From the NCBI RefSeq assembly GCF_017834145.1, contig NZ_JAFIDA010000001.1, positions 2,356,001 to 2,420,000 on the forward strand: a DNA stretch of 64,000 nucleotides. The letters are read 5' to 3'. Within the stretch, counting starts at the first letter, position 1. Every line of letters begins with the position of its first letter. Source of the stretch: Leucobacter exalbidus. GTDB lineage: Bacteria > Actinomycetota > Actinomycetes > Actinomycetales > Microbacteriaceae. Below are positions 18,917 through 41,067 of this stretch, piece by piece. Position numbers and translations under genes: made by a program. Under the pieces are notes generated by a model. The model had not been told where the DNA came from and ran no database searches. It was given only the letters and a program-made list of their open reading frames with translations.

Positions 18917-19555
18917 CTAAACGTGCAGAATATGCTTCCCGGCAACGCGAGACACCGGGGCTGCGAGCGTATCTGCGACAAGTCTGGCGAATGAAGCCTC
19001 TCGGCCACTGAGTGAATCCGTGATGATGATGCTGGCGCCCCCGGGGTCGTCCGCGGTGCGAAGGGCCGGATCAAGCGCGAGCGTCCACGCCTCTGAAGCG
19101 GCCTTAACCGCCGCGTAGTTGGCACTGCTGGGGGTGGGGCGCCGCGCGATCGGTGAGCTCACCGTAATAACACGTGGCGAAGCCGTCTTGAGTAGCCCAT
19201 CATGAAACTCTCGCGAGACGTTACGTAGCGAATGGAAAGAAGCTGCGAGTAGATCGTATTTCTCATCGCTCTGGCCTGTGATGCCCTTGCCGCCTGCCCA
19301 GCCACCGACGAGATGTACCAATCCAATTACCTCGAGACCGAGTCGCGCGATATCAGCGCTCAGCTGCGTGACTTCCTTGCCGTCGGTGAGATCGGCAGAG
19401 AAGTGCGTCGCGGTCAACGCATTGACTGAAACTGGAGCAGCGCTCGCTGCGGACTGGCTGACGATGACGACGGCAATGCCGCGGCCAAGGAGCTCCTCGG
19501 CCACGGCAACACCGGCAGCGCTCATCCCTCCGGTGAGAAGAATGACTGGTGTCAT
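18917..19555 (-). CDS. SDR family oxidoreductase
   Basis: 212-residue short-chain dehydrogenase/reductase. The Rossmann opening is ILLTGGMSAAGVAVAEELL (TGxxxAxG pattern), and the catalytic stretch VITVSSPIARRPTPSSANYAAVKAA gives the Ser and the YxxxK pair. It would oxidise or reduce a hydroxy/keto compound with NAD(P). At 212 residues it is at the short end for classical SDRs (about 250); the C-terminal substrate-binding loop is reduced. Its ATG overlaps the TAA of the acyl-CoA-dehydrogenase-like gene upstream (TAATG), so the two are translated together and probably act on consecutive intermediates. Confidence 0.82.
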   Translation of the reverse strand: MTPVILLTGGMSAAGVAVAEELLGRGIAVVIVSQSAASAAPVSVNALTATHFSADLTDGKEVTQLSADIARLGLEVIGLVHLVGGWAGGKGITGQSDEKYDLLAASFHSLRNVSREFHDGLLKTASPRVITVSSPIARRPTPSSANYAAVKAASEAWTLALDPALRTADDPGGASIIITDSLSGREASFARLVADTLAAPVSRVAGKHILHV

Positions 19556-20793
19556 TACGCGGCAGGCTTTTCGTATAGGTGACGATTCTGCGGGTGCGGC
19601 GGGCGCACGTAGCCAAACTCGACGTCAAGCTGAGGACCTTCCTCGAGATCCTTCGAAAGCCAGTACTGACCAGCGCGGTCAAATGAAGCCTCCACAACAA
19701 TTGCGTGCTGTGAAGCGGTCATCATGTCGCGGAAGATTCGCTCAATACGAAGACCTCTGACGGTGCCGACTGCACCGACCTCCTTGAAGATCATCTCGAC
19801 GACCTGGCGCGATTCAGCCACCACATGAACATTTACCTCGTGCATGAGTACTCGTAGTTCGTAATCAATGTGCACGTTCGTTTTTGCGGACTCGTAGGCC
19901 TTGCCGATGATGTCACGCATGAAGAGTCGCGCTGAGCGAATCTTGGCGTCTGCCTTGCCGACGGCGATGGCGTTGCTTTGCTCTTTACCCAGGCGTGCTT
20001 GGCGAAAGGAGCCAGGACGGGCGCGCATGCGGGTGGACTTCTTGAATTCTTCGAGCGCAGCGACCGCGAGGCCGAGCGCGTGGGCTGCGTGCGCCGAGAG
20101 GTTGAAGTTCGCGCGCATCAGCGGGGAGTCATAGTTATGCGTCCAGATGCCAGTTTCATTGACCATCTCGGTAGGTACGAAGACTTCTTCGATGGTGATG
20201 TTGCCACTACCAGTACCGCGCAGGCCGAGGCCATCCCAGTCGTTGTGTACCTGGACGTCTTTAGCAGGTACATACCCCGAGATGTAGTAGGGCAGGCCGT
20301 CACGGGGGCTGATCATCGGTTCGCCATTTTCATCGTGCAGCACGGAACGGCCGTACAGGAATGTGGCTTCGGGGGAACCAGAGCAGAAGGGCCATTTGCC
20401 CTTGATCATGTAACCGCCGTCGACTTTGCGTGCAATACCGCTTGCGCGACCGACGTTGCCTGCGGTGATCCAACGCTCGGTCTTGAGAATTTCCTTCATG
20501 GCTTCGGGTTTGGCCCAGGTTGAGCCAGTGTGCAGCATGCAGAGCCAACCAACTGAGCCATTCATGCGCGAGATCTCTTCGACGGCCTCGAGCCATTCGT
20601 TGGGGTGTACATCGAGCCCGCCGAGTTCCTTGGGTAGGAACGCGCGATACATGCCGCAGTCATAGAGAGCGTCGGTGATCTCGGTGGGTACTCGTCGTTC
20701 GTTCTCAATGATCGTCTCAGCGTCGAGGATCATCTGTTCGTACTGCTGCACCACCTGTGCGAGGCGGGGTTGAGTGGCCGAAGTTTCGGTCAT
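19555..20793 (-). CDS. Acyl-CoA dehydrogenase-fold flavin monooxygenase (group D)
   Basis: 412 residues with the acyl-CoA dehydrogenase fold, but closest in pattern to two-component flavin hydroxylases (HsaA, DszC, p-hydroxyphenylacetate hydroxylase C2 type). These take reduced flavin from a partner reductase and hydroxylate an aromatic ring or oxidise N/S. Visible blocks: ELGGLDVHPNEWLEAVEEISRMNGSVGWL at the N-terminus, GGYMIKGKWPFCSGSPEA (middle beta domain), and GAVGTVRGLRIERIFRDMMTASQHA (the C-terminal type 2 region with the conserved R-x-x-RD-x-xT-x-x-H). The general-base Glu of true acyl-CoA dehydrogenases is not evident. First gene of a unit with the SDR; a flavin reductase is encoded at 37790. 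An acyl-CoA dehydrogenase role is less likely. Confidence 0.82.
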   Translation of the reverse strand: MTETSATQPRLAQVVQQYEQMILDAETIIENERRVPTEITDALYDCGMYRAFLPKELGGLDVHPNEWLEAVEEISRMNGSVGWLCMLHTGSTWAKPEAMKEILKTERWITAGNVGRASGIARKVDGGYMIKGKWPFCSGSPEATFLYGRSVLHDENGEPMISPRDGLPYYISGYVPAKDVQVHNDWDGLGLRGTGSGNITIEEVFVPTEMVNETGIWTHNYDSPLMRANFNLSAHAAHALGLAVAALEEFKKSTRMRARPGSFRQARLGKEQSNAIAVGKADAKIRSARLFMRDIIGKAYESAKTNVHIDYELRVLMHEVNVHVVAESRQVVEMIFKEVGAVGTVRGLRIERIFRDMMTASQHAIVVEASFDRAGQYWLSKDLEEGPQLDVEFGYVRPPHPQNRHLYEKPAA

Positions 20794-20907
20794 GGGACTT
20801 CCAATCCGTACTATATTGATACTCGCATGCCATTATGCGAATCTTTATTATTCAGAGTATAGACACGAAGTGAATCATAAAGCCAGAATTCTGCGCAAAA
20901 TTATTCA

Positions 20908-20923
20908 ATTGAATATAGTTATT
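20908..20923. promoter_or_regulatory. Candidate island operator, site 1
   Basis: ATTGAATATAGTTATT, matching the site at 27856 in 13 of 16 positions. It lies in the AT-rich divergent gap 20794-21001 between the flavin monooxygenase and the first S10 peptidase, beside the palindrome ATTCAATTGAAT (20903-20914). A weaker ATATTGA copy is at 20812-20818, next to the monooxygenase start. Confidence 0.55.
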
Positions 20924-21001
20924 ATGATTAAGGCATCTCACCTCGTGAGGTGCGGCTCGTGCGCGAGCGCCCCAAGATCAATGCGGATCGGAAGAAGAGT
21001 T

Positions 21002-22480: not shown

Positions 22481-22516
22481 TAAGGCGCCAATAACACAGC
22501 CAATGCAATGATTCCA

Positions 22517-22546
22517 GGTACCGACATGGCTCGGCATCGGGTACCT
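22517..22546 (+). terminator. Probable terminator after S10 copy 1
   Basis: Inverted repeat GGTACCGA / TCGGGTACC with one bulge, followed by TTAAA, in the 99-base gap before the regulator genes. Confidence 0.55.
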
Positions 22547-22579
22547 TAAAGTTCTAATGGTTATACAGGATTCGAAAGA

Positions 22580-23302
22580 GTGGCGATAGACATCGTGAGT
22601 AAGTTCGCATCGGGCAGCGGGGTTCCCGCCTCGCGCGCGCTCGCAGATACCCTGGTTGATGTGCTCGAACAAGAGATTCGAGAGGGTGACCTGCAGCCCG
22701 GCTATTTTGTGGGTACCAAGCGTGAATTGCTGGACCGATTCAATGTCGCGCCGGCCACACTGGGCGAAGCAATTCGGGTTTTGCGTAACCGCGGTGTTAT
22801 TTCTGTGAAGCCCGGCCCGGGCGGCGGTATTTTCCTCGCCGAGCAGTCACCCATTATGCGGCTCGGACACGAGCTGATTCAACTGCGCGCTGAGGACTCC
22901 ACCGTTGATGAATGTCTGCGCATTACTGACTCCTTGGACCAGGTGATTCTGTCTGACGCAGTTATCCACCGCACGGCGAAAGACGTCAAAGATCTGGAAA
23001 AGCTCATCGCAGAGCTTGAGCGGGTGTGGGAAGACTCTGACCTTGCGCAGCCGTTGAATTGGCAGCTGCACAAACGTATTGCCCAGATCTCACCCAACAA
23101 GATTCTCAGCATGGTGTACACGAACGTCGTTGACTTTATTCTGACGAACCTTGATGGTCTGCCTAAAGCTGAAGGGTTTTCGGCAACCTCTGAAGAGAGA
23201 CTGGCAGTGCATCGTCAGTTGGTTGATGCCATTGTGAACCGAGACCTGGATGCCGCGCTCGCTGCAGTGCGCGATCACCAGACGGTGCTTTCGAGCAAGT
23301 GA
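22580..23302 (+). CDS. GntR family transcriptional regulator (FCD/FadR type)
   Basis: 240-residue regulator. Residues about 14-80 form the GntR winged helix: ALADTLVDVLEQEIREGDLQPG, then GTKRELLDRFNVAPATLGEAIRVLRNRGVISVKPGPGGGIF. The C-terminal helical domain (DECLRITDSLDQVIL, ELERVWEDSDLAQPLNWQLHKRIA) fits the FCD effector domain, which usually binds a carboxylate via a metal site. FCD regulators commonly bind TGGT-type palindromes; TGGTTATA occurs at 22558-22565, within this gene's own promoter, and matches a half of the island operator (25138). Autoregulation plus control of the neighbouring units is inferred. Start GTG at 22580 after GAAAGAG. Its TGA overlaps the GTG of the IclR gene. Confidence 0.88.
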   Translation: MAIDIVSKFASGSGVPASRALADTLVDVLEQEIREGDLQPGYFVGTKRELLDRFNVAPATLGEAIRVLRNRGVISVKPGPGGGIFLAEQSPIMRLGHELIQLRAEDSTVDECLRITDSLDQVILSDAVIHRTAKDVKDLEKLIAELERVWEDSDLAQPLNWQLHKRIAQISPNKILSMVYTNVVDFILTNLDGLPKAEGFSATSEERLAVHRQLVDAIVNRDLDAALAAVRDHQTVLSSK

Positions 23303-23976
23303 TTACCGCGGCTGAGCAACGCTCGACGACAGTGTCTCGTGCGATTGACCTGTTGTATCTGCTCGCTGAGCATGAGGCCGGCATGTCGATTACTGAACTA
23401 GCTCGAGAGCTCAGCACGCAGCGGCCACCGTTGTACCGCATCGTCGGCAGTTTGATGGAGCGAGGGCTGGTTCACCGCACGTCTACGGGGAAATATGTGT
23501 TGGGGGCTGGGCTGATTGAACTCGCTCGCCCACTAGAGCGCACCCTTGACGAGCTCGTTGCGGGCCCGCTGCAACGCGCTGCTAATGCCTCGGGTGCAGG
23601 TGCGGTGCTCGTGCTCGACACTGCCGACGGTCTTGTCGCAGCGGTGAGTAAGTCACCTGAAACCGTGCAAATGCATCTCGTCACCCCTGTGGGTCACCGT
23701 TTCAGTGAGGGGCCGATCGCACCTCGGCTTGCTATTGACAGCGTGAATCACCCTGAACGGGCAGAGCTTGCGGAGATTCGGGACCGCGGATACGCGACGA
23801 GCTCTGGACAAGCGTTTGCAGGCTCGTGGGCTGCGGCTTTCTCGGTGACGCTGCCCGACCAATACGGGGTCGCCTGCGTAATGCTTGCGACGATGCATCC
23901 CGAAGACGAAGACCGGTTAATCACCGTGGGCAATGCTGCCGTCGCTGAGATTGCAAAGTTCTGCGGGCGAGCTTAA
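23299..23976 (+). CDS. IclR family transcriptional regulator
   Basis: 225 residues. The N-terminal winged helix is clear: RAIDLLYLLAEHEAGMSITELARELSTQRPPLYRIVGSLMERGLVHRT, followed by KYVLGAGLIELAR. The effector domain (VLVLDTADGLVAAVSKSPETV, DRGYATSSGQAFAGSWAAAF) is GAF-like. IclR proteins usually sense aromatic or small acid intermediates and control catabolic operons. The GTG start overlaps the GntR stop (GTGA), so the two regulators are made from one mRNA in a fixed ratio. That pairing suggests the island responds to two signals. Only 27 bases separate it from the convergent aminotransferase. Confidence 0.88.
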   Translation: MITAAEQRSTTVSRAIDLLYLLAEHEAGMSITELARELSTQRPPLYRIVGSLMERGLVHRTSTGKYVLGAGLIELARPLERTLDELVAGPLQRAANASGAGAVLVLDTADGLVAAVSKSPETVQMHLVTPVGHRFSEGPIAPRLAIDSVNHPERAELAEIRDRGYATSSGQAFAGSWAAAFSVTLPDQYGVACVMLATMHPEDEDRLITVGNAAVAEIAKFCGRA

Positions 23977-24003
23977 CTCGGCCCGCAGAACTTGCATGGC
24001 AAG

Positions 24004-25080
24004 CTAGTTACGCTGCAGTGACTTGGCGAACGCGATGAGGCGATCGTTTGCTTCCGTTTCGGCGATGGTGGCCCGGAGTCCTTCGCCGGGGAACGGCCGT
24101 ACGATGAGCCCTGCCTGCTCGAGCAATGTAGCGGCTTCTGGCGTAGCTTCTCCGAGGGGCAGCCAGACAAAGTTTGCCTGCGTTTCAGGGTGCGAAACGC
24201 CAGCCAACGCGAGGGCCTCAACGACGCGCTCGCGTTCGGCGATGAGCGCGTCAACGCGTACCTGCAGCTCATCCTCTACCTCGAGCGAGAGCACTGCGGC
24301 TGCTTGGGCGAAGGCGGTTACGCCGAAGGGAATAGCGACCGCGCGCATGGCTCGGGCGAGTGGCGCAGGGGCGATGGCGTAGCCCACGCGCAGGCCAGCG
24401 AGGCCGTATGCCTTTGAGAAGGTGTGTGCCACCGCGATGTTAGAACGCCGCTTGAAGATCTCGACGCCAACAGGGGCATCTTCCTGGCGGTTGAAATGCT
24501 GGTAGGCCTCATCGATGACGACGGTAATGTTCTCGGGCACCTGCTCCAAGAAGCGTTCGAGGGCTTCGGCACTCACCGTGGTGCCTGTCGGGTTGTTGGG
24601 GTTGCAAACGAGAATGAGACGCGTACGGTCAGTTATCGCCGCGAGCATTGCGTCTAAGTCGTGGCATAGGTCGGCATCGAGGGGCACCATGACAGGCTCG
24701 GCTCCACCGGCACGCACCAGCATGGGGTAGGCCTCGAATGAGCGCCAGGCAAACAGGACCTCGTCACCGGGGCCGGCGGTGGCGCGGATGAGTTGAGACA
24801 TGATTTCAATGGAGCCGCTGCCCAGCACGATATTTTCGGTGGCTACGCCATGCTGCTCAGAGAGCGCACCAACGAGAGCTGCCCCTGAGGAGTCGGGGTA
24901 ACGGTTCACGGTCCCTGCAAGCTCAGCGATGAGCGTCTGCACTGAAGGCAGCGGCGTGTACGGGTTTTCATTAGACGAGATCTTATAGGTCTCGAGGTCG
25001 GAGAGATCTGCTGAGGCTGATTTGCCCTGACGGTACTCGGGGATGGCTGCGAGATCTTCGCGAATGCTGAGGCCAGTCAT
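24004..25080 (-). CDS. HisC/Pat-like PLP aminotransferase
   Basis: 358-residue fold-type I aminotransferase of the histidinol-phosphate/aromatic aminotransferase branch. Lys223 in HTFSKAYGLAGLRVGYA is the Schiff-base residue; SSNENPYTPLP, NPNNPTGTTVS and VIDEAYQHFN are the other PLP blocks. The start is the ATG at 25080 after AAAAGGAGTTACGC; the longer frame to 25152 runs through the divergent promoter. In mycobacteria relatives of HisC serve as phenylalanine/aromatic aminotransferases (Pat), and no histidine genes are near, so an aromatic amino acid or aryl-pyruvate substrate is more likely than histidinol phosphate. Inference: it makes the 2-oxo acid used by the ThDP enzyme at 27958. Confidence 0.85.
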   Translation of the reverse strand: MTGLSIREDLAAIPEYRQGKSASADLSDLETYKISSNENPYTPLPSVQTLIAELAGTVNRYPDSSGAALVGALSEQHGVATENIVLGSGSIEIMSQLIRATAGPGDEVLFAWRSFEAYPMLVRAGGAEPVMVPLDADLCHDLDAMLAAITDRTRLILVCNPNNPTGTTVSAEALERFLEQVPENITVVIDEAYQHFNRQEDAPVGVEIFKRRSNIAVAHTFSKAYGLAGLRVGYAIAPAPLARAMRAVAIPFGVTAFAQAAAVLSLEVEDELQVRVDALIAERERVVEALALAGVSHPETQANFVWLPLGEATPEAATLLEQAGLIVRPFPGEGLRATIAETEANDRLIAFAKSLQRN

Positions 25081-25137
25081 GCGTAACTCCTTTTGGATTT
25101 GCTGAATGGGGTCGCGCACGCGCCCCGGATTGGATAA

Positions 25138-25153: not shown

Positions 25154-25173
25154 TGAATTGAATTGAGGCGAAG

Positions 25174-26652
25174 TTGAACGACTGGAAATCAAGTGCACAG
25201 GAATTCCAAGCTGGTTTAGCGGCCAACGGTGGTGCAGGGCGCACATTCGTTGGCCATGTTGAACGGTTCACGGTGCGTGGCCCCGGTGGGCAGCCGCTCG
25301 GCACTGCCCATACAACTGCGTACGTGATTGAGCCGCGCGAGGACGAGGCCAAGCGGCCCGTCGCCTTTGTGTTTAATGGCGGGCCGGGCGTCTCCTCGGT
25401 GTGGCTGCACATCGGTGGTGTGGGGCCGTTCCGCGTCGCAGTGCCCGAAGACCTGACGCAGGGCATGCTCCCGCCGTATGAACTTGAGGAGAATGGTGGC
25501 AGTCTTTTGCGGGCTGCCGATCTGGTGTTCATTGATCCAATCCGTACGGGCTATGGGCGCATTGATCCGGATCAAAACCCCGCTCTTGCCTCGGAGCTCA
25601 CCAGCGGCGTCGAAGGTGACGTCGACCATTTCGCCGAGATTATCAGTGACTGGCTACTGCGCCATGATCGCCTCGGTGACGCCGTGTATCTCGTCGGAGA
25701 AAGCTATGGCACCATTCGTGCGTCATTGCTGGCCACCCGCCTGCAGCTGCTCGACAACGCGATTGCGATCTCTGGCATTGCTCTCATTGGGCAGGCCGTG
25801 AATGCACAGGAAACCACACAGCGCCCCGGTAACCCCGTGGGTTACCTTGCCGCAGTGCCGTATCTTGCGGTTACCGCGCGTTACCACGGTCTTGGTGCAT
25901 ACACCTCGATGGGGGTTGATGAGCTGGCCGAGAAGGCTCATGAGTGGTCACTGGGACGGTACGCCGCAGCTCTTTTGCAGGGCGACGCGCTTGCCGCTGA
26001 TCAGGCGCGCGAAATCGCGCAAGAGCTCTCGGATTTTTGCGGACTGCCGGTGGAGACGCTGCTTTCATTGCAGCTGAGAGTGAATAAAGAAGACTTTAGG
26101 CGCGCGCTCATTCCGGGTCAGGTTATTGGGTTGACCGATGGGCGCTACACGCTCCCGAAAGCTCAAAACGGATTCCCCGAACTCGAATTTGAGCCCACGG
26201 GAGCGCATCTCGATGCAGCGTACACCGCGCTTATCCATCGTCACTTTACGCACGGGCTCGGTGTCGAAAGCGATGTGCCGTACCTGCTTGCCGACGCGGG
26301 CACGCATGAGCGGTGGGATTACCAGGAGAGCCGTGCCGCGGGTGCGTTTGGGGGAAGCCCGATGCCTTCACCATTCGCTACGTTCGACTATGCCGCAAAT
26401 CTGCGGGCGTGGATGCGCGCGAATCGCGCCGCGCGACTGTTCGTGGGTACCGGGCACTATGACTCGCTGACCACGGTGGGGGCCGCTCAGAATATGTTGA
26501 GCCAGAACGCCCTACCGCGCGACCGGGTCACTTTCTGTACGTATGAGGGTGGGCACATGATGTACACCGACCGGGCTTCAGCGCACAAACTGGGCGCTGA
26601 CTTGCGCGCATTCATCGCAGGGACCGCACCCGCTCAGGAGGGCAACGCATGA
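25174..26652 (+). CDS. S10 family serine carboxypeptidase-like protein (copy 2)
   Basis: 492-residue S10 peptidase, distant paralogue of the one at 21002. Shared features: VAFVFNGGPGVSSVWLHIGG, AADLVFIDPIRTGYGRI, nucleophile in LVGESYGTIRASLL (Ser177), late Asp in VGTGHYDSLTT and His in YEGGHMMYTD. No signal peptide. The TTG start follows GAGGCGAAG. The stop overlaps the ATG of the amidohydrolase (ATGA), so hydrolysis by this enzyme and by the amidohydrolase is coupled at translation. Sequence divergence between the two S10 copies is considerable outside the motifs, so different substrates are likely. Confidence 0.88.
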   Translation: MNDWKSSAQEFQAGLAANGGAGRTFVGHVERFTVRGPGGQPLGTAHTTAYVIEPREDEAKRPVAFVFNGGPGVSSVWLHIGGVGPFRVAVPEDLTQGMLPPYELEENGGSLLRAADLVFIDPIRTGYGRIDPDQNPALASELTSGVEGDVDHFAEIISDWLLRHDRLGDAVYLVGESYGTIRASLLATRLQLLDNAIAISGIALIGQAVNAQETTQRPGNPVGYLAAVPYLAVTARYHGLGAYTSMGVDELAEKAHEWSLGRYAAALLQGDALAADQAREIAQELSDFCGLPVETLLSLQLRVNKEDFRRALIPGQVIGLTDGRYTLPKAQNGFPELEFEPTGAHLDAAYTALIHRHFTHGLGVESDVPYLLADAGTHERWDYQESRAAGAFGGSPMPSPFATFDYAANLRAWMRANRAARLFVGTGHYDSLTTVGAAQNMLSQNALPRDRVTFCTYEGGHMMYTDRASAHKLGADLRAFIAGTAPAQEGNA

Positions 26653-27842
26653 GCGAATCAGAGTTTATTATCGTCGGCGCACGTACCCTGACCGGTGCGG
26701 GCGAGGTGTTCGAGGCGGGCGCCGTTCATGTGAATGATGGCCGCATAGTGTGGGTCGGTGAGGAAGCCGACCTCGTTGGACTGCCCTCCGATGTGCCGCG
26801 CGTCGACGCGACCGGAAGCTGGCTGACGCCTGGCTTGATCGACGCCCACAGCCATATTGGTGCCCACGAAGACGGCAATGGGTGGGCCGGCGCTGATGCC
26901 TCTGAGCTGGCCCGCCCAAACACCGCTGGGGTGCGCATTATTGACGCCGTCAACACCGAGGATGTCGCCTTTGCGGACGCCATCGGTGGTGGCGTCACTA
27001 CGGTGGTTATCAAGCCGGGCTCAGGTAACCCCATTGGTGGCCGCACCGTGGCGATCAAAACGGCAGGTTCGCGTATTATCGACGACCGAGTGGTGCGGGC
27101 CGACGTGAGCGTGAAATCGGCACTGGGTGAGAATCCAAAGCGCACGTATGAGAGTCGGTCGCAGTCTCCCATGACCCGGTTGGGTACGGCGCACGTGATT
27201 CGGCAAGCAATGAGCGATGCGCAGGATTATGCAAGGCGTCGAGCTTCCGCCGAAGTTACGGGCGATCAGCTGAAGGTTGATCTTGATCTTGAAGCGCTCG
27301 CCGCGGTGCTGTCGGGGGAGCTGTTGTGGGATCTGCACGTGCACCGGCACGATGACATCGCCACAGCGCTGCGCATTGCTGATGAGTTCGGTCTCAACGT
27401 GGTGCTGAATCACGGTACCGAGGCGCACAAGCTTGCCGAAGTGCTTGCTCGACGTGACGTACCGGTGATTTTTGGGCCGATTCTCACCACCCGCGGCAAA
27501 GTGGAGTGTGCTGAAGCTGATCCGGCAAATCTGGCTAGGCTCTCGGAAGCTGGCGTGCGCATCGCGTTGACAACGGACCATCCGGTCGTGCCCCAGCAGT
27601 ACTTGGCGTTGCAAGGCAGCATCGCCATACGCGCAGGGTTGTCTTGGGAAGCCGCGATGGCCGCGGTTACGGCATCGCCGGCCCAGATCGCACGAATCGA
27701 TGACCGGGTGGGGACGCTGGCCCCGGGGCTCGATGCTGACCTCGTGCTGTGGTCGGGTGACCCCTTCGACGCGGCCAGCGTTGTACGAGCAGTGTTTATC
27801 GAAGGTCAGCGGGTGGCCGGAGTTGGCGAAGGTCTCGAATAA
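26649..27842 (+). CDS. Metal-dependent amidohydrolase (imidazolonepropionase-like)
   Basis: 397-residue TIM-barrel amidohydrolase. The mononuclear/binuclear metal motif is LTPGLIDAHSHIG (HxH); later His appear in DLHVHRHDDIATALRIAD and VLNHGTEAHKL, and the catalytic Asp in RIALTTDHPVVPQQY. The N- and C-terminal strands form the usual beta sandwich (VGARTLTGAGEVFEAGAV ... ADLVLWSGDPFD). Such enzymes cleave cyclic amides or C-terminal amide bonds of dipeptides (prolidase/Xaa-Pro-like relatives). Coupled to S10 copy 2 by a 4-base overlap. Operator site 3 lies immediately downstream. Confidence 0.88.
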   Translation: MSESEFIIVGARTLTGAGEVFEAGAVHVNDGRIVWVGEEADLVGLPSDVPRVDATGSWLTPGLIDAHSHIGAHEDGNGWAGADASELARPNTAGVRIIDAVNTEDVAFADAIGGGVTTVVIKPGSGNPIGGRTVAIKTAGSRIIDDRVVRADVSVKSALGENPKRTYESRSQSPMTRLGTAHVIRQAMSDAQDYARRRASAEVTGDQLKVDLDLEALAAVLSGELLWDLHVHRHDDIATALRIADEFGLNVVLNHGTEAHKLAEVLARRDVPVIFGPILTTRGKVECAEADPANLARLSEAGVRIALTTDHPVVPQQYLALQGSIAIRAGLSWEAAMAAVTASPAQIARIDDRVGTLAPGLDADLVLWSGDPFDAASVVRAVFIEGQRVAGVGEGLE

Positions 27843-27855
27843 ATATTTGCCTTAA

Positions 27856-32782: not shown

Positions 32783-33805
32783 ATGACGACGCAGCCACTC
32801 ACTCTGCAGTCGAGCGGCAACGCTGCGGCCCTGGGAACTCCCCGGGGCCGCAGCGGTAACCGCTGGCTGAAATTCCTCCTTCGACGCATGGTGCGCATGG
32901 TGGTGTCACTTTTTGTGATCGTCACTGCGGCATTTATGGTGCTCCGTCTCGCAGGCGGTGACCCGGTGCGCTCAGCGCTCGGGCCCACCGTCGATGAGGC
33001 AGTCGTACAAGCAAAGCGAGATGCACTGGGCCTTAATGACCCCATCCTCGTGCAATTCTGGAACTATCTCGTCGGGCTCCTTCACGGAGACCTCGGCGCC
33101 TCTCTCATCACGGGCCGTTCCGTGACAGAGCTCGTTGAGTTTCGGCTGCCCGCAACACTGCAGCTGGCAGGCCTCGCATTCGTGCTCGTGCTCATCGTGG
33201 CGGTGCCGCTCGGGCTCTCGATTGCCTTGCTTACCCAGGGCGGTAAGCGACGCGGCACCGAGCTCACCTTCACCAGCGTGACCGGTGTGCTCGCCGCAGT
33301 ACCCGAGTACCTTCTGGCGGTGTTCATGGTGCTGATCTTCTCGGTCACGTTGAAGCTGTTGCCTGTCGCGGGTAACTCAGAGCCACAGTCATACATCTTG
33401 CCGGTGCTCGCACTGGCGCTCGGATCTTCGGCGTCACTGTCTCGTATTGCTCGTATCGAAGCGCTGAACACGCTGTCTGAGGACTACATCCGTACGGCCC
33501 GTTCAAAGCGCCTACCCGCGTGGATGGTTAATTTTCGGCACGCGCTTCCCAACATGCTTACCGCCACGCTCACGCTGGGAGGCTCGTTGCTGGCTTCCAT
33601 GATTGTGGGCAGTGTGCTCGTCGAGCAGGTCTTTAACTGGCCTGGTCTGGGATCCGCCTTCGTGCAGGCCATCGTGACCAAGGATTACGGCATCGTGCAA
33701 GGTCTTGCAATTGTGTATGCCTCCATTATTTTGGTCGTCAACTTCGTCGTCGATATCGTGCTTTCGCTCATCGACCGACGCACTACTCTTCTGGAGACGG
33801 CATGA
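32783..33805 (+). CDS. ABC transporter permease, DppB type
   Basis: 340-residue inner-membrane permease of the peptide/nickel ABC family. After a 30-residue cytosolic tail the first segment is MVRMVVSLFVIVTAAFMVLRLAGGDP, with the RLAGGDPVR motif of DppB proteins. About six membrane segments. The EAA-like cytosolic loop that contacts the ATPase is EDYIRTARSKRLPAWMVNFRH. Stop overlaps the start of the next gene by 4 bases (ATGA). Confidence 0.92.
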   Translation: MTTQPLTLQSSGNAAALGTPRGRSGNRWLKFLLRRMVRMVVSLFVIVTAAFMVLRLAGGDPVRSALGPTVDEAVVQAKRDALGLNDPILVQFWNYLVGLLHGDLGASLITGRSVTELVEFRLPATLQLAGLAFVLVLIVAVPLGLSIALLTQGGKRRGTELTFTSVTGVLAAVPEYLLAVFMVLIFSVTLKLLPVAGNSEPQSYILPVLALALGSSASLSRIARIEALNTLSEDYIRTARSKRLPAWMVNFRHALPNMLTATLTLGGSLLASMIVGSVLVEQVFNWPGLGSAFVQAIVTKDYGIVQGLAIVYASIILVVNFVVDIVLSLIDRRTTLLETA

Positions 33806-36483
33806 CATCCCGACGCAGTTCATTCTGGCGCTCGCCAATGGCGGCCCTTTCAGGGGGCATCGTCACGCTGCTGGCTTTGCTCGCCATTTTCGCCCCCATT
33901 TTTTGGGGCGAAGCCGCCGCGACTCCGGATCCGACTGCGCTGCTGCAGTCCCCGAGCGCAGCGCATCCGCTCGGCACCGATAGTCTCGGTCGCGATCTGC
34001 TGTTGCGCACATTGGTCGCGACCCGCACCTCACTCGTCATGGCACTCATCGCCACCGCATGCGGTGCCGTAGCCGGGCTTATTCTGGGTGCGTTGCCCGC
34101 TGTGCTGGGCGTGCGTGCGCAGCGTGCTTTCAGCGCGGTCATCAATACCTGGCTCGCATTCCCTGTGCTGCTTGTCGCCATGCTCACCGTGATTCTGCTC
34201 GGGGCGGGTCCTGCAACCTCAGTGATCGCACTCGCGCTCACGATGACACCGTCCTTTGCGCGACTCGCTCAAACGCTGTCTTCTCGTGTGGGCGGTTCTG
34301 AGTATCTCGCCGCCGCAAAAATGTTGGGTGTCTCTAAGCCCCGCCAGTATCTCAAGTACGTGCTGCCGAATATTGGTGAGCCGGTCATCGTCAATGTGAC
34401 CATCTCTATTGGTGGCGGTTTGCTCGCGCTCTCGAGCCTGAGTTTCTTGGGCGTCGGTATTCAGCCGCCCGAGTATGACTGGGGTCGCATGCTCAACGAG
34501 GGCTTTGCGCAGGTCTACAGTCAGCCTTCGGCGGTGGTGGGCCCTGGTGTGCTCGTCGTCCTCGCCGGTTTGTCGTTTGGCATGTTGGGCGAGGCGCTCG
34601 CCTCACACATGCGGCAGCAGGGCCGAGGCCGTATGCTCTCGGCACGTAAACTCGGCCCCGCGCCGAGCGCGAAGGCCGATGCGATCGAAGGCAATCCGGT
34701 GCTCAGCGTGCCTGGCAGCGCCTCAGGGCACAACGCCGGCAGCGAAGTGCAGCCCCTGCTCGAGGTCGAAGGCCTCGCGGTCTCATTCCCTGGCGAAGAA
34801 GGGTGGATTCGCCCCGTGAGCAACGTGTCCTTCTCCATCATGCCCGGTGAACTCGTCGGGGTGGTGGGTGAATCGGGCAGCGGTAAGAGCGTCACCATGA
34901 TGTCTGTGGCTCAACTTGCGCCAGCCAACGCCGCAGTAACCGCCACCAAGCTGAAGTTCAACGGGCAGGAGCTTTCCCACCTCTCGGCCGTCGAAGCAGG
35001 GCAGGTGCTCGGAACTCAGGTTGGCGTCATCTTCCAGGATTCATTGACCGCGCTGAACCCGGCATTGCGGGTAGGTACCCAGCTCGCTGAGGTGCCTCGC
35101 GTGCACGAACACGTGAGTCGTAAAGTTGCCCATGCGCGGGCCGTCGCAGCTCTGGACGAAGTGCGCATCCCAGAGCCCGAGCGTCGGGCTATGCAATTTC
35201 CGCACGAGTTCTCGGGCGGCATGCGGCAGCGCTCCCTCATTGCGATGGCGCAGATTGGCAGCCCGTCTCTCATCATCGCCGACGAGCCCACTACCGCGCT
35301 AGATGTCACCGTTCAGCAGCGAGTGCTGGCCCTGCTCCGCGCTAAGTGCGAGGAAACTGGCGCCGCTGCCATTGTGATCTCCCACGACATTGCGGTGCTC
35401 GCTGAGCTCTGCTCACGCATCCTCGTGATGTACAAGGGCGAGATCGTTGAAAATATTGACGTACGAGATCTGCCGCATCCTGAGCGACTGCAACACCCGT
35501 ATTCGCGAGCGCTCGTCGAATGCATGCCTGATTTGACGACGGACCGGTCGCTGCCCCTGGCAACCATCCCCGAGGATCCTCAGTACCTCACGGAGTCGGT
35601 TGATGATGAACACCCCACATGGGAACGTAAGCCAACACAGCTCATCAGCGTGGTGGAAGACGGTGCTGCTGCGCGTCGAGGCGCAGACCTGGTGGTTGAT
35701 GATCTCGTCGTGACGTTTGGGCATGGAGCTAAGGCTTTCAACGCGGTCGACGGCGTATCATTCGAGCTCGCAAGCGGTTCTGTCCTCGGGTTGGTGGGCG
35801 AATCCGGATCGGGGAAATCCACGGTGGCGCGTACCATCGCAGGCCTGCAGCCTGCGACTGCTGGCCGCGTGAGTATCGGAGGCGATGATCTCTTGCGCAC
35901 CGCAGGGGTGAACCGGCTCGAGCGGGCACGTGATGTCCAAATGATTTTCCAGGATCCGTATTCATCGCTCAACCCGCGCATGAACGTGCGCGAGGTACTC
36001 GATGAGGTGCTGATGACCCATGGCATGACGAACGCGCGTGAACGACGCACCCAAGTGTCTGAGCTGCTCGACCTTGTACGGCTGCGTGCCAATACAGCTG
36101 ACCTCTACCCCGGTCAGATGTCGGGCGGTATGCGCCAGCGTGTGGCGATCGCTCGATGCCTCGCAGCTAAACCACGGCTCATCATCGCCGACGAAATTAC
36201 TTCGGCGCTCGATGCTTCAGTACAGGGTGCAGTGCTGAACCTGATTCGTGAATTGCAGCGCGAACTCGATATCTCGATGCTGTTCATCACGCACAACCTG
36301 GCAGCGGTGCGATATATCGCAGACCGCACCGCCGTCATGCAGCACGGCCGCATTGTCGAGATTGCTGATCCAGACAAGCTCGTGCGTGCGCCTGAACACC
36401 CCTACACCCAGACCCTGGTCGACGCGATTCCCCGCATCGACAACGCGGGCACTGATGCGCTACTGAGGAGTCTCAGAACATGA
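33802..36483 (+). CDS. Fused ABC permease (DppC) - ATPase (DppD) - ATPase (DppF)
   Basis: 893-residue three-part fusion. Residues about 1-285 are a DppC-type permease (HPLGTDSLGRDLLLRTLVATR, and EYLAAAKMLGVSKPRQYLKY as coupling loop). Residues about 315-590 form the first ATPase: Walker A GESGSGKSVTM (near 358), Q loop VIFQDSLTALNP, signature FSGGMRQRSL, Walker B LIIADEPTTALD. After a linker with the TIPEDPQYL element, residues about 630-885 form the second ATPase: GESGSGKSTVART (near 668), IFQDPYSSLNP, MSGGMRQRVAIARC, LIIADEITSALDAS. In the second Walker B region the usual DEPTS is DEITS; the catalytic Glu is kept. Permease-plus-one-ATPase fusions are known in actinobacteria; having both ATPases in the chain fixes a 1:1:1 ratio. 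No frameshift was seen at the junctions. Confidence 0.93.
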   Translation: MTSRRSSFWRSPMAALSGGIVTLLALLAIFAPIFWGEAAATPDPTALLQSPSAAHPLGTDSLGRDLLLRTLVATRTSLVMALIATACGAVAGLILGALPAVLGVRAQRAFSAVINTWLAFPVLLVAMLTVILLGAGPATSVIALALTMTPSFARLAQTLSSRVGGSEYLAAAKMLGVSKPRQYLKYVLPNIGEPVIVNVTISIGGGLLALSSLSFLGVGIQPPEYDWGRMLNEGFAQVYSQPSAVVGPGVLVVLAGLSFGMLGEALASHMRQQGRGRMLSARKLGPAPSAKADAIEGNPVLSVPGSASGHNAGSEVQPLLEVEGLAVSFPGEEGWIRPVSNVSFSIMPGELVGVVGESGSGKSVTMMSVAQLAPANAAVTATKLKFNGQELSHLSAVEAGQVLGTQVGVIFQDSLTALNPALRVGTQLAEVPRVHEHVSRKVAHARAVAALDEVRIPEPERRAMQFPHEFSGGMRQRSLIAMAQIGSPSLIIADEPTTALDVTVQQRVLALLRAKCEETGAAAIVISHDIAVLAELCSRILVMYKGEIVENIDVRDLPHPERLQHPYSRALVECMPDLTTDRSLPLATIPEDPQYLTESVDDEHPTWERKPTQLISVVEDGAAARRGADLVVDDLVVTFGHGAKAFNAVDGVSFELASGSVLGLVGESGSGKSTVARTIAGLQPATAGRVSIGGDDLLRTAGVNRLERARDVQMIFQDPYSSLNPRMNVREVLDEVLMTHGMTNARERRTQVSELLDLVRLRANTADLYPGQMSGGMRQRVAIARCLAAKPRLIIADEITSALDASVQGAVLNLIRELQRELDISMLFITHNLAAVRYIADRTAVMQHGRIVEIADPDKLVRAPEHPYTQTLVDAIPRIDNAGTDALLRSLRT

Positions 36484-37682: not shown

Positions 37683-37705
37683 ACGGCGCCAGTACCGCAT
37701 TGCGC

Positions 37706-37745
37706 CCTTCGATGTAATCCATTATATTGAATTACATCGAAGGGG
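37706..37745. promoter_or_regulatory. Candidate island operator, site 4, within a 14-bp inverted repeat
   Basis: Perfect 14-bp arms (37706-37719 and 37732-37745) enclose a 12-base centre. The centre and edges (37718-37733) match the reverse of the site at 27856 in 13 of 16 positions. A second, 7-bp inverted repeat with GGATCC arms follows at 37745-37762. It may act both as terminator for the import unit and as operator for the flavin reductase gene. Confidence 0.55.
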
Positions 37746-37789
37746 ATCCAATGGTGGATCCTCCGTAAATACACGGAAGTGGGGCGCGC

Positions 37790-38332: not shown

Positions 38333-38404
38333 ACACCGCGCACTGTGGGCACAGGCCCGCGTTTCTTCCTCAATGACGACAGAATCTCAGAAACGGAGCG
38401 TGTG

Positions 38405-39859
38405 ATGAGCATTCGCACTGGCCAGCAGTACCTCGACCGACTTAACGAGCGGACGGGGCAGATTTATCTCGACGGAGAGCTGATCTCCACCAACATTGCT
38501 GAGCACCCGAAGCTTGCGCCGGGGGCTCGCGCTTTCGCCAAGCTCTATGACATGCAACACGACCCCGCACACCGTGACGTGCTGACATTTGAGTCGCCGA
38601 CGAGTGGTGAACGCGTCAGCACGTCGTTCCTGGTGCCGCGCACCGAAGCTGATTTGGTGCAGCGCCGAGAAGCAATGGCATTGGTTGCTCGCTCATCGCA
38701 TGGCTTCTTAGGGCGCACAGGTGACTACATGAACAGCGCGCTCGCGGCGCTGTCAAGCGCCAAAACTTTCTTCGAGCAGGCAGACCCCGTGTTTGGCGAG
38801 CGCATTGAACGCTACACCGAGTATGTCCGTGAAAATGATCTCCTCACCGCCCACGCACTCATCACCCCGCAGGCAAACCGCGCCGAAACCGGTAGCCAGC
38901 CGATGGGTGACTCCCGCATTGCCGCGCGCATCGTCGAAGAACGTGAGGACGGCATCGTTGTGCGGGGCGCCCGCATGCTGGCCACTAATGCCCCGATCGC
39001 AGACGAGCTGCTCGTGTTCCCCTCAACCGTGTTGCGTGGAGCCCCGCAAGACGCACCCTACTCGTATGCGTTTGCCGTGCCGAGCGATGCCCCCGGCCTG
39101 AAGTATTACTGCCGCGCTCCGCTGCACGCCGGGGCTGGCAGCCTCGACGAGCCTCTGGCGAGTCGATTTGAGGAGCTTGACGCCTTTGTGGTGTTCGATG
39201 ACGTGTTCGTACCGAACGACCGTATCTTCATGTTGGGGAATCCACGGCTGCGCAATGAGTGGTACTCGGCCACGGGAGCTGGCGCGCTGATGACGCACCA
39301 GGTGGTGTGCCGCACACTCGCGAAAACAGAGTTCTATCTTGGTCTTGCCGCTGAACTCGCCGATGCAATTGGCATTGAAGATTTCCAGCACATTCAAGAA
39401 GATCTCGGTGAGCTCATCACATATGTCGAGCTTGAGCGTGCGCTGTTGCGTGCCTCCGAAACTGAAGGTGAAGTAAGTGCAGACGGCGTCTACCTGCCCA
39501 AATGGAGCACGCTGAACGCCGCCCGCAACTGGTATCCCAAGAGTGTCTCGCAGCGGTTGCCCGAGATCATACGTAAGTTCTCAGCATCGGGTCTTATGGC
39601 CTTGCCGAGCGAAGCCGACCTCGATAACCCTGACGAGCGAGCAGATCTTGACCGGTACCTACAGGGTGCACGGGTTGACGCTCAAAGTCGCATTCGCCTG
39701 TTCAAACTTGCACTGGACGCCTCAGTTTCGGGTTTCGCTGGTCGTGAAAGCCTGTACGAGTATTACTTCTTCGGTGACCCTGTGCGAATGAAAACAGCAC
39801 TTGTGAAGGGCTACGATTTTGGCGTCGTGCGTGAACGTGTACGCGAACTGTTGGTGTGA
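38405..39859 (+). CDS. 4-hydroxyphenylacetate 3-hydroxylase (HpaB) family oxygenase
   Basis: 484-residue FADH2-using phenol hydroxylase of the HpaB family, giving an ortho-hydroxylated (catechol-type) product. MSIRTGQQYLDRLNERTGQIYLDGE is the standard N-terminus; GFLGRTGDYMNSALAAL is the conserved block preceding the flavin domain, and YFFGDPVRMKTALVKGYD the C-terminal one. The ATG at 38405 is preceded by ACGGAGCG. The substrate may be 4-hydroxyphenylacetate, tyrosine or a related phenol. No ring-cleavage genes are in the window, so if it feeds catabolism the lower pathway is elsewhere. It overlaps the M20 copy 2 gene. Confidence 0.88.
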   Translation: MSIRTGQQYLDRLNERTGQIYLDGELISTNIAEHPKLAPGARAFAKLYDMQHDPAHRDVLTFESPTSGERVSTSFLVPRTEADLVQRREAMALVARSSHGFLGRTGDYMNSALAALSSAKTFFEQADPVFGERIERYTEYVRENDLLTAHALITPQANRAETGSQPMGDSRIAARIVEEREDGIVVRGARMLATNAPIADELLVFPSTVLRGAPQDAPYSYAFAVPSDAPGLKYYCRAPLHAGAGSLDEPLASRFEELDAFVVFDDVFVPNDRIFMLGNPRLRNEWYSATGAGALMTHQVVCRTLAKTEFYLGLAAELADAIGIEDFQHIQEDLGELITYVELERALLRASETEGEVSADGVYLPKWSTLNAARNWYPKSVSQRLPEIIRKFSASGLMALPSEADLDNPDERADLDRYLQGARVDAQSRIRLFKLALDASVSGFAGRESLYEYYFFGDPVRMKTALVKGYDFGVVRERVRELLV

Positions 39860-41067
39860 GCGGCATGACGATTGAAGTTCATGTTCGTGAAGCCCTGCGC
39901 ATTCGTGCTGCCTCATTGCAGCCCGAGCTCGTGGAACTACGTCGCGCACTGCACCGCATTCCAGAGCCTGGGTTTGAGGTGCCGCTGACTCAGCAAGCGG
40001 TGCTCGAGGCGCTGGCTGGGCTGCCGCTTCAGATCACCACCGGTGCTTCGCTCGGATCGGTGACGGCGGTGCTCACGGGTGCGCGCCCGGGGCCGAGCGT
40101 GCTGTTGCGCGGGGACATGGACGCCCTGCCCATTGCCGAGGAAACGGGCCTTCCATATGCCGCGACGAATGGCGCCATGCATGCGTGCGGGCATGATCTG
40201 CACGTGGCAGGCCTCGTAGGAGCGGCGAAGTTGCTGTGTGAAATGCAGGCTGATCTTGCCGGGTCGGTCGTTTTCATGTTTCAACCTGGTGAGGAAGCTG
40301 GGGGCGGTGCACCGCGCATGATTACGGAGGGCGTACTTGAAGCGGCGGGTAGCCGGGTCGAGGCCGCCTACGGCATTCACGTGCTGCCAGGGGTGCGCGG
40401 TACTTTTCAAACCAAACCAGGCCCGCTGATGGGCGGCGCTAATTTGTTCACCGTGACGGTGCACGGCAAGGGCGGCCACGGGTCGCGGCCGCACGAAGCG
40501 ATTGATCCGGTGCCGGTGCTGGCCGAGATGATCCTCGCGCTGCAGAGCTACGCCACACGCCGGCTGTCGCCCAATGACCCTGCGATCATCTCGGTGACCA
40601 AGCTGTCAGGGAGCAGCGCGGTGAATATTATTGCCGACGAGGCTTCCTTCTCGGCGACAGTGCGTACGTTGTCTCGTGATGTGCTCGAACAGCTGCGAGT
40701 CGGCCTGCCTCGCATGGTCGCTCTGATCGCCGAGGCTCACGGCTGCACGGTCGATGCAAATTTCACGGTCGTTTATCCGGTCACAGTGAATGATCATGCG
40801 GCGACCAGCGGCGCCATCGACGCGCTCACAGAAACATTTGGTGCAGAGCGAGTGGAGACGCTCACCGCTCCGATTATGGCATCTGAGGATTTCTCATTTG
40901 TGCTCGACGAAGTGCCAGGAACGTTTCTGTTCTTGGGTGCTACGCCGCCAGAGATCGACCCTGCAGATGCTGAAATGAACCACTCGCCGCGTGCGCAATT
41001 TGATGATGCGGTGCTGGGGGATCAAGCTGTGGCGCTCGCGGTACTCGCGCTGCAGCATCTAAGCTGA
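39856..41067 (+). CDS. M20 family amidohydrolase (copy 2)
   Basis: 403-residue paralogue of the enzyme at 36480. Motifs: RGDMDALPIAEETG, HACGHDLHVAGLVGAAKL, MFQPGEEAGGGA, GKGGHGSRPHEAIDP and MASEDFSFVLDEVPG. The GTG at 39856 overlaps the HpaB-like stop (GTGA); the ATG at 39865 is an alternative. In this position it could release the substrate of the hydroxylase from an amino acid conjugate. It ends the island; a 126-base gap with a strong terminator follows. Confidence 0.9.
   Translation: MSGMTIEVHVREALRIRAASLQPELVELRRALHRIPEPGFEVPLTQQAVLEALAGLPLQITTGASLGSVTAVLTGARPGPSVLLRGDMDALPIAEETGLPYAATNGAMHACGHDLHVAGLVGAAKLLCEMQADLAGSVVFMFQPGEEAGGGAPRMITEGVLEAAGSRVEAAYGIHVLPGVRGTFQTKPGPLMGGANLFTVTVHGKGGHGSRPHEAIDPVPVLAEMILALQSYATRRLSPNDPAIISVTKLSGSSAVNIIADEASFSATVRTLSRDVLEQLRVGLPRMVALIAEAHGCTVDANFTVVYPVTVNDHAATSGAIDALTETFGAERVETLTAPIMASEDFSFVLDEVPGTFLFLGATPPEIDPADAEMNHSPRAQFDDAVLGDQAVALAVLALQHLS

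What the first reader, a model, noticed from the sequence alone, without database searches (positions are those of the whole stretch)
18917..41067. Undescribed catabolic island for a peptide- or acyl-linked (probably aromatic) amino acid compound
Seen: one block with an oligopeptide importer, two S10 carboxypeptidases, two M20 amidohydrolases, a metal amidohydrolase, a HisC/Pat-like aminotransferase, a ThDP decarboxylase-like enzyme, an ALDH, two monooxygenases, a flavin reductase, an SDR and two regulators, many translationally coupled. Known: Pat-type transamination, aryl-pyruvate decarboxylation, ALDH and HpaBC hydroxylation form an Ehrlich-like route from Tyr or Phe to (hydroxy)phenylacetates. 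Inference: the block imports a small peptide or conjugate, trims it, and converts the released residue to a hydroxylated aryl-acid. No ring-cleavage genes are visible, so it may be an upper pathway or a detoxification route. I know of no described cluster with this composition.
Basis: partly seen in the sequence, partly recalled or inferred. Interest (0 to 1): 0.78.

Follow-up and report, generated by a model that had tools for sequence, protein, structure and literature searches.

The report
Imported tyrosine-peptide degradation gene island
A transferable block of 17 genes, apparently controlled as one unit, probably lets a bacterium import small aromatic peptides or amides and turn the released tyrosine-like residue into a compound that a ring-breaking pathway elsewhere on its chromosome can use.

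Summary
It is an insertion. In 3 of 5 relatives examined the genes on either side are direct neighbours, and its GC3 is 0.66 against 0.83 outside. It recurs at other sites in 2 of the 53 other genus genomes searched, and with other oxygenases in another genus (G680).

(1) Ring-cleavage genes are on the same chromosome: a homoprotocatechuate (3,4-dihydroxyphenylacetate) meta-cleavage locus. In G680 the peptide module lies directly beside such a locus. (2) The only five matches (>=16 bits) to an 18-bp palindrome in the window lie in five island promoters. Such sites also occur in module promoters of three other genera, where GntR is the only island regulator that recurs. (3) Residues fit an aromatic aminotransferase and a 4-hydroxyphenylacetate 3-hydroxylase.

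Best reading: import a small Tyr- (or Phe-) containing peptide or amide, hydrolyse it, then transaminate, decarboxylate, oxidise and hydroxylate the residue to homoprotocatechuate. The chemistry is inferred from homology. The substrate and the roles of the ACAD-type monooxygenase, SDR and metal amidohydrolase stay open. New variant of a known kind.

The parts
18917..19555 (-). SDR oxidoreductase, 212 aa
   Evidence: Pfam adh_short 63 bits; 54-57% in G001/G032
19555..20793 (-). ACAD-type (group D) flavin monooxygenase
   Evidence: Acyl-CoA_dh_2; best NCBIfam HsaA 140.8 bits, below its 450 cut-off; 81-83% in G001/G032
20907..20924 (.). operator site, divergent ACADmono/S10a promoter
   Evidence: PWM 23.2 bits
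21002..22480 (+). S10 serine carboxypeptidase-like hydrolase A, no evident signal peptide
   Evidence: Pfam Peptidase_S10 39.9 bits; GESYG, D and GHM motifs conserved in 3 carriers
22580..23302 (+). GntR/FCD regulator, probable cognate of the operator
   Evidence: FCD + GntR; only island regulator with homologues in G680, G114, G999
23299..23976 (+). IclR-type regulator
   Evidence: HTH_IclR 42.1 bits; 62-66% in G001/G032, no homologue found in the G680, G114, G999 stretches
24004..25080 (-). aromatic (Pat-type) aminotransferase
   Evidence: PRK03321 484 bits > 374 cut-off; nearest solved chain 4r2n 315 bits; ArAT-type pocket residues
25137..25154 (.). operator site, AT/S10b divergent promoter
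   Evidence: PWM 29.5 bits
25174..26652 (+). S10 serine carboxypeptidase-like hydrolase B, no evident signal peptide
   Evidence: Peptidase_S10 38.4 bits; conserved GESYG, GHYDS and GGH/AGH motifs
26649..27842 (+). metal-dependent amidohydrolase
   Evidence: Amidohydro_1 61.8 bits; nearest solved chain 3ooq 319 bits
27854..27871 (.). operator site, ThDP-ALDH promoter
   Evidence: PWM 29.1 bits
27958..29628 (+). ThDP-dependent enzyme, inferred 2-oxo-acid decarboxylase
   Evidence: three TPP_enzyme domains; PRK08266 684 bits > 571; best solved hits AHAS
29625..31073 (+). aldehyde dehydrogenase
   Evidence: Aldedh 490 bits
31120..31137 (.). operator site, SBP-Opp promoter
   Evidence: PWM 25.1 bits
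31183..32766 (+). family-5 solute-binding lipoprotein
   Evidence: SBP_bac_5 168.8 bits; nearest solved chain 6lu2 123.6 bits; lipobox-like N-terminus read
32783..33805 (+). OppB-type permease
   Evidence: BPD_transp_1
33802..36483 (+). OppC-OppD-OppF triple fusion
   Evidence: BPD_transp_1, OppC_N, two ABC_tran stretches and oligo_HPY in 893 aa
36480..37682 (+). M20 amidohydrolase A
   Evidence: TIGR01891 279.1 bits > 153.75
37716..37733 (.). operator site, FlavR-HpaB-M20b promoter
   Evidence: PWM 27.1 bits
37790..38332 (+). flavin reductase (StyB/HpaC-like)
   Evidence: Flavin_Reduct 111 bits; NCBIfam models all below cut-off
38405..39859 (+). HpaB-type 4-hydroxyphenylacetate 3-monooxygenase
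   Evidence: TIGR02309 527 bits > 480.2; Arg100/Tyr104/His142/Ser197/Thr198 equivalents present
39856..41067 (+). M20 amidohydrolase B
   Evidence: TIGR01891 289.7 bits > 153.75

Best explanation
The block is a horizontally acquired, probably GntR-controlled upper pathway. A lipoprotein-dependent ABC importer brings in a small aromatic peptide or N-acyl/amide conjugate. S10 and M20 hydrolases inside the cell (plus a metal amidohydrolase) release an aromatic amino acid, most likely tyrosine. The Pat-type transaminase, ThDP enzyme and ALDH turn it into the arylacetic acid. HpaB with the flavin reductase adds the 3-hydroxyl, giving homoprotocatechuate, which the resident HpaD-HpaE-HpaG-HpaI-HpaH-like locus cleaves and passes on to central metabolism. 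Shown: gene content, conservation, insertion, shared operator, active-site residues of two enzymes, the ring-cleavage locus in the same genome, the physical linkage in G680. Inferred: substrate, order of steps, decarboxylase activity, location of the hydrolases, assignment of the operator to GntR.
For: Block conserved in G001 and G032 and, with other oxygenases, in G680, where an HpaI...HpaG-GntR-HpaE-HpaD run ends about 200 bp before the S10a gene of the module. HpaD over cut-off in G000 (428 bits > 321.4) and in 48 of 54 genus genomes. HpaB-1 over cut-off in 3 of 54, exactly the island carriers. HpaB residues R100, Y104, H142, S197, T198 all kept. Aminotransferase pocket Ile/Phe/Ala/Phe against Val/Phe/Leu/Phe in a tested mycobacterial ArAT and Asn/Tyr/Met/Tyr in HspAT. 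Operator: 5 of 5 window hits at >=16 bits lie in island promoters, 0.17 expected per resampled copy; sites also in G680, G114 and G999 module promoters. A dipeptidase-family M20 (TIGR01887 237 bits > 207.95) belongs to the G114 version.
Against: The ThDP enzyme's best solved relatives are acetohydroxyacid synthases, and the residue before DGxYG, Asn in two homologues, is Thr or His. The aminotransferase pocket is not fully conserved: Leu112 is Ala in all six modules, and Val86 is Ser in G999. The binding protein's nearest solved relative is 6lu2, recalled as a hydrazide binder, not a peptide binder. The HPC loci lack the operator, so joint control is not shown. 45 HpaD-positive genus genomes have no HpaB-1 over cut-off, so that pathway has other feeds and its presence is not specific to the island. 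G114 has the core module but no HpaD match. HpaE- and HpaI-like proteins are just or clearly under their cut-offs and no HpaF was identified. The ACAD monooxygenase, SDR and AmdH have no assigned step.
Confidence: 0.6

Rival explanations
1. The imported compound is not a peptide but an aromatic amide or conjugate (for example an N-acyl amino acid or an aryl amide from plants or pesticides); the hydrolases split the amide, and the acid half is what HpaB and the ACAD enzyme hydroxylate.
For: Nearest solved relative of the binding protein is 6lu2 (123.6 bits, next 74.1), recalled as the Microbacterium hydrazide-transporter protein of Shimamura et al. 2020, whose title alone was seen, in a reference list. 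M20 proteins are over the TIGR01891 amidohydrolase cut-off. Three kinds of amide hydrolase in one set of co-regulated genes.
Against: An aminotransferase and a 2-oxo-acid type ThDP enzyme belong to the core kept in G680, G114 and G999, so an amino acid is probably processed. G114 and G999 versions carry a dipeptidase-family M20.
Confidence: 0.22
2. The ThDP enzyme is a carboligase: the 2-oxo acid is joined to another carbonyl compound to give an acyloin product, and the HpaB part is a side reaction.
For: Best solved relatives are acetohydroxyacid synthases; no ALDH homologue in the G114 and G999 stretches.
Against: An ALDH overlaps it in the window and is adjacent in G001, G032, G680, G098, G619 and G880. 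The second-best NCBIfam model is a 2-oxo-acid decarboxylase, 347 bits though below its 500 cut-off. Linkage with HPC genes in G680.
Confidence: 0.12
3. Tryptophan/indole route: Trp to indoleacetate, then an IacA-like monooxygenase and SDR destroy indoleacetate.
For: ACAD-type monooxygenase next to an SDR with a flavin reductase in the block, an arrangement recalled from iac clusters; the mycobacterial ArAT accepts Trp.
Against: No Rieske IacC/D-type protein among the 17 island proteins; HpaB keeps the 4-hydroxyphenylacetate-binding residues; G680 links the module to HpaD; no intradiol dioxygenase (PF00775) in G000.
Confidence: 0.05
4. Detoxification or biosynthesis rather than nutrition: the block inactivates or makes a small bioactive peptide.
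For: Three kinds of amide hydrolase, two oxygenases and sporadic distribution (3 of 54 genus genomes).
Against: Importer, FCD-GntR regulator and physical linkage to a ring-cleavage locus in G680. No ligase, NRPS or exporter among the Pfam hits of the 17 proteins.
Confidence: 0.08

Closest known systems
4-hydroxyphenylacetate (homoprotocatechuate) meta pathway, hpaBC-hpaDEFGHI
   Same: HpaB-type hydroxylase and flavin reductase in the island; HpaD, HpaE-like, HpaG-like, HpaH and HpaI-like proteins at G000:C1 2919.5-2926.1 kb
   Different: Upper part split off on a transferred island and fed by an importer, amide hydrolases, transaminase and ThDP enzyme; no HpaF identified
Ehrlich-type tyrosine/phenylalanine degradation (transaminase, 2-oxo-acid decarboxylase, aldehyde dehydrogenase)
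   Same: Order of enzyme classes; Pat-type aminotransferase
   Different: ThDP enzyme is PRK08266/AHAS-like, not PDC/IPDC-like by nearest relatives; coupled to import, amide hydrolysis and a dedicated operator
Arginine transaminase pathway (AruH, AruI ThDP decarboxylase, aldehyde dehydrogenase; recalled)
   Same: Transaminase, ThDP 2-oxo-acid enzyme and ALDH; second-best NCBIfam model of the ThDP enzyme is 5-guanidino-2-oxopentanoate decarboxylase
   Different: Aminotransferase pocket is aromatic-type; HpaB present; different substrate class inferred
iac indoleacetate degradation (recalled)
   Same: ACAD-type monooxygenase, SDR, flavin reductase
   Different: No Rieske dioxygenase in the block; HpaB present; module linked to HpaD in G680

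Membership tests
HpaB, FAD-dependent 4-HPA 3-monooxygenase | Score over TIGR02309 cut-off | tested here: met
   527 bits against 480.2
HpaB, FAD-dependent 4-HPA 3-monooxygenase | Arg100-Tyr104-His142 and Ser197/Thr198 (T. thermophilus numbering) | tested here: met
   Read by hand off the alignment to 2yyg; residue list from passages of PMC10537072
HpaB, FAD-dependent 4-HPA 3-monooxygenase | Hydroxylation of 4-hydroxyphenylacetate | not testable with these tools
   needs assay
Homoprotocatechuate meta pathway | HpaD dioxygenase in the genome | tested here: met
   428 bits against 321.4
Homoprotocatechuate meta pathway | HpaH hydratase | tested here: met
   354.3 against 351.5
Homoprotocatechuate meta pathway | HpaE, HpaG, HpaI | tested here: inconclusive
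   HpaE 635.8 just under 638.35; HpaI 316.8 under 368.8; HpaG place taken by a protein over the generic PRK12764 fumarylacetoacetate-hydrolase-family cut-off, 779.9 > 444. Same six-gene order in G001, G032, G010
Homoprotocatechuate meta pathway | HpaF isomerase | tested here: inconclusive
   not among the 7 proteins scanned at E <= 1e-40; short ORFs and the rest of the genome not searched for it
Aromatic aminotransferase (Pat/ArAT) | Closer to ArAT than to HisC/HspAT | tested here: met
   4r2n 315.5 bits, next HisC 141.2; PRK03321 over cut-off, hisC just under
Aromatic aminotransferase (Pat/ArAT) | Hydrophobic tetrad Val86/Phe110/Leu112/Phe246 | tested here: met
   Ile/Phe/Ala/Phe in the window, mapped by hand (chain number is paper number plus 1). 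Over six modules both Phe and the Ala are constant; the first position is Ile, Val or, in G999, Ser. Tetrad from passages of PMC4703992
PDC/IPDC-type arylpyruvate decarboxylase | PDC/IPDC among the nearest solved relatives of the ThDP enzyme | tested here: not met
   best solved hits are AHAS; no pyruvate or indolepyruvate decarboxylase among the 60 shown of 149
iac-type indoleacetate degradation | Rieske IacC/D proteins in the cluster | tested here: not met
   no Rieske domain in the 17 island proteins
Integrative element (ICE, integrase island) | Integrase or transposase in the block, direct repeats at the ends | tested here: not met
   none among the 17 proteins; longest shared direct string near the ends 9 bp; the one tRNA is at 3289

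The most novel reading that the evidence does not exclude
A transferable 'peptide-fed' aromatic amino acid module (Opp importer, S10 and M20 hydrolases, ArAT, ThDP enzyme, GntR and its palindromic operator) occurs in at least two families of the order and takes on exchangeable ring-oxygenation cassettes: HpaB plus ACAD/SDR in this genus, a Rieske oxygenase with its own reductase in G680. The extra oxygenases would let it open modified tyrosine residues, such as O-linked or cross-linked tyrosines of plant or microbial peptides, that ordinary tyrosine catabolism cannot use.
Probability: 0.12. Interest if true: 0.75.

Novelty: new variant of a known kind. Interest (0 to 1): 0.5.

Why it matters
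It connects four things usually treated apart: peptide or amide uptake, S10 carboxypeptidase-like enzymes without a signal peptide (my searches found no described role for them in such a setting), an Ehrlich-type upper pathway, and homoprotocatechuate ring cleavage. The shared operator makes the regulon and its inducer directly testable. The exchange of oxygenase cassettes around one core shows how catabolic range can be extended module by module.

Tried and rejected
Plasmid searches with three proteins found nothing at or above 60% identity. The best S10b hit (43%, Streptomyces sp. NBC_01445 plasmid) has two S10, an M20 and an Opp importer in its 31-kb stretch, but no homologue of the island's transaminase, ThDP enzyme or HpaB there.

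ACAD monooxygenase as a guide to substrate: in a class sample 34 of 394 genomes matched at E <= 1e-30, but apart from G000 at no more than 141 bits. Closer homologues (in pieces: 49 and 63% in G051, 54-55% in G737, 42 and 60% in G729) and one at 36% in G833 sit in other surroundings, three of the four with an IclR homologue and each with some ABC transporter, so it does not reveal the substrate. Intradiol cleavage as end route: PF00775 is absent from G000 but present in the 4 other genus genomes tested. Integrative element: no integrase, no convincing terminal repeats. Partial sets: G098 and G619 have a ThDP-ALDH pair (49-50% and 47-48%), in G098 about 10 kb from HpaG-HpaD; G880 has AT (42%), ThDP (51%) and ALDH (42%) within 7 kb; G603 has a ThDP relative alone (49%). 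None of these four stretches has the operator, an S10 homologue or the importer.

Literature: searches returned no paper. One search matched 22 papers (15 listed) and one; only these listings were seen, none about such a cluster by title or abstract start. The library holds only openly licensed PMC papers, so absence in print is not established.
Full report
WHAT IS THERE. The window lies at G000:C1:2356001-2420000 of a one-contig 3.18-Mb genome. By eye none of the S10, M20 or AmdH proteins has a signal sequence, while the binding protein has a lipobox-like start (sequences), so hydrolysis after import is the natural reading.

IT IS AN INSERTION THAT MOVES AS A BLOCK. In G031, the relative with the most similar BirA (78%), the order AccD-BirA-permease-amidohydrolase-(second permease)-TetR-PurU-GlyA-FolD is continuous, with under 50 bp between BirA and the permease. 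In the window the same two genes, at 18853 and 41194, are parted by 22.3 kb. Of 5 relatives examined, G031, G019 and G003 show BirA and the permease as direct neighbours, G037 has another permease beside BirA, and G052 is rearranged. GC3 is 0.663 over 17 island genes and 0.828 over 20 flanking genes. In G001 the island is 0.784 (17 genes) against 0.94-0.95 for two resident HPC genes; in G032 it is 0.924 (13 of its 15 genes measured) against 0.95-0.96 for three. No integrase was found; the longest shared direct string near the ends is 9 bp. A search of 54 genus genomes with the monooxygenase alignment (E <= 1e-60) hit 4: G000, G001, G032 and a more distant copy in G051. G001 keeps all 17 genes in the same order; G032 lacks AmdH and M20b and has reductase-HpaB beside the SDR. 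In G032 the island (2.36 Mb) and BirA (1.59 Mb) are far apart; in G001 they are on different contigs, so the sites differ.

RING CLEAVAGE IS ELSEWHERE IN THE GENOME. HpaD (TIGR02295) scores 428 bits against a cut-off of 321.4 at G000:C1:2919559-2920446. Beside it lie an HpaE-like protein (635.8, cut-off 638.35), a regulator, an HpaG-like fusion (PRK12764, 779.9 > 444), an HpaI-like protein (316.8, cut-off 368.8) and HpaH (354.3 > 351.5), in the same order in G001, G032 and G010. HpaD is over cut-off in 48 of 54 genus genomes. HpaB-1 is over cut-off in 3 of 54, exactly the three island carriers and at the island position; 8 further genomes have only sub-cut-off HpaB relatives (198-337 bits). 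So the island supplies the only HpaB-1 over cut-off in these genomes. It also follows that most HpaD-bearing species of the genus feed that pathway in some other way. Intradiol dioxygenase (PF00775) was not found in G000.

PHYSICAL LINKAGE IN ANOTHER GENUS. A sample of 398 family genomes searched with the ThDP alignment gave 7 with a hit at E <= 1e-100, G000 included; two others are close. In G680 (another genus) the module (S10a 59%, M20a 64%, OppCD and OppF 70-72%, OppB 76%, SBP 62%, ALDH 66%, ThDP 74%, GntR 47%, M20b 66%, AmdH 64%, S10b 59%, AT 66%) begins about 200 bp after HpaD of an HpaI...HpaG-GntR-HpaE-HpaD run (HpaD ORF ends 8903, S10a ORF starts 9100). No homologue of HpaB, its reductase, the ACAD monooxygenase or the SDR was found in that 40-kb stretch. 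Between AmdH and S10b are instead a Rieske oxygenase (nearest solved chain a putative phthalate 4,5-dioxygenase alpha subunit, 156 bits) and a reductase. G114 (another genus) and G999 (another family; 3 of 317 order genomes hit at E <= 1e-140, G000 included) keep only the core: importer, dipeptidase-like M20, S10, AT, GntR, ThDP. G114 has no HpaD match; G999 was not tested for it. G098 has a ThDP-ALDH pair (50% and 47%) about 10 kb from its HPC genes but no importer, S10 or operator.

ONE OPERATOR. Intergenic regions of the three islands share AT-rich palindromes. A matrix built from 8 sites of G001 and G032 only (seeded with a site seen by eye, which also occurs in the window) has the consensus AATTCATTATAATGAATT. 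In the 64-kb window it has 5 hits at >= 16 bits, at 20907, 25137, 27854, 31120 and 37716 (23.2-29.5 bits), each in an island promoter. Sixty Markov-resampled copies averaged 0.17 hits at that level and had none at >= 23 bits. At a looser 13 bits two more appear, at 7816 (14.3) and 37949 (13.7), with about 1 expected. Sites at >= 16 bits occur in module promoters of G680 (9033, 17249, 20473, 27998), G114 (12940, 18236, 18274, 20021) and G999 (5952, 18915), and not in the three empty-site loci, G024, G098, G619, G603 or G880. The HPC stretches of G001 and G032 have none, and that of G000 only one 16.5-bit match about 6 kb beyond the locus. GntR is the only island regulator with homologues in all three outside modules, so it is the likely cognate protein; binding was not tested.

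ENZYME-LEVEL CHECKS. Aminotransferase: nearest solved chain is the mycobacterial aromatic aminotransferase 4r2n (315 bits, next HisC 141). Positions Val86, Phe110, Leu112 and Phe246 of that enzyme, reported as its hydrophobic pocket (passages of PMC4703992), are Ile, Phe, Ala, Phe here; the HspAT counterpart is Asn, Tyr, Met, Tyr. In the six modules the first position is Ile, Val or (G999) Ser, the others constant. The reported preference of the mycobacterial enzyme is Phe > Tyr > Trp. HpaB: the five substrate-contact residues named in PMC10537072 (passages) are all present in the alignment to the Thermus enzyme. ThDP enzyme: the catalytic Glu motif is present, but the residue before DGxYG, Asn in G999 and G603, is Thr in the window and G001 and His in G032 and G680; its best solved relatives are acetohydroxyacid synthases. 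Binding protein: nearest 6lu2, recalled as the hydrazide-transporter protein; only the paper's title was seen, in a reference list.

READING. The simplest account joining these facts is an inducible, transferable upper pathway from a small aromatic peptide or amide to homoprotocatechuate. Weak points are the unknown substrate, the unassigned ACAD monooxygenase, SDR and AmdH, and the inferred activity of the ThDP enzyme. The order of hydroxylation and side-chain shortening is not fixed by the data. In the searches made (openly licensed PMC only) no description of such a cluster appeared.

Noticed in passing
window 33802-36483: OppC, OppD and OppF are fused in one 893-aa protein here and in G001 and G032, while in G680, G114 and G999 the OppF part is separate from OppCD.
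   Followed up: partly
window 27958-29628: The residue before DGxYG of the ThDP enzyme, Asn in G999 and G603, is Thr (window, G001) or His (G032, G680).
   Followed up: partly
L034:7388-11854: Downstream of the G032 island: HsaB-like reductase, ALDH, luciferase-like monooxygenase and PcaD-like hydrolase in a row, possibly another aromatic cluster.
   Followed up: no
L035:10095-19306 and L036:803-5402: G024 carries a different peptide cluster: Opp importer, three S10 proteins and two proteins with M61 glycyl aminopeptidase matches, without the operator.
   Followed up: partly
L232: Streptomyces sp. NBC_01445 plasmid: two S10, an M20, an Opp importer and, by eye, a class-V-like PLP enzyme in one stretch, unannotated in the collection.
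   Followed up: partly
L260:13814 to L261:695: G880 has AT (42%), a small-molecule ABC transporter, ThDP (51%) and ALDH (42%) in a row without peptide hydrolases, perhaps a free-amino-acid version of the route.
   Followed up: no
G000 whole genome: No intradiol dioxygenase (PF00775) in G000, though the 4 other genus genomes tested have it.
   Followed up: no
L172:8366: A 16.5-bit match to the island operator about 6 kb beyond the HPC locus of G000, upstream of a gene that looks like a sugar-type ABC binding protein; likely chance.
   Followed up: no
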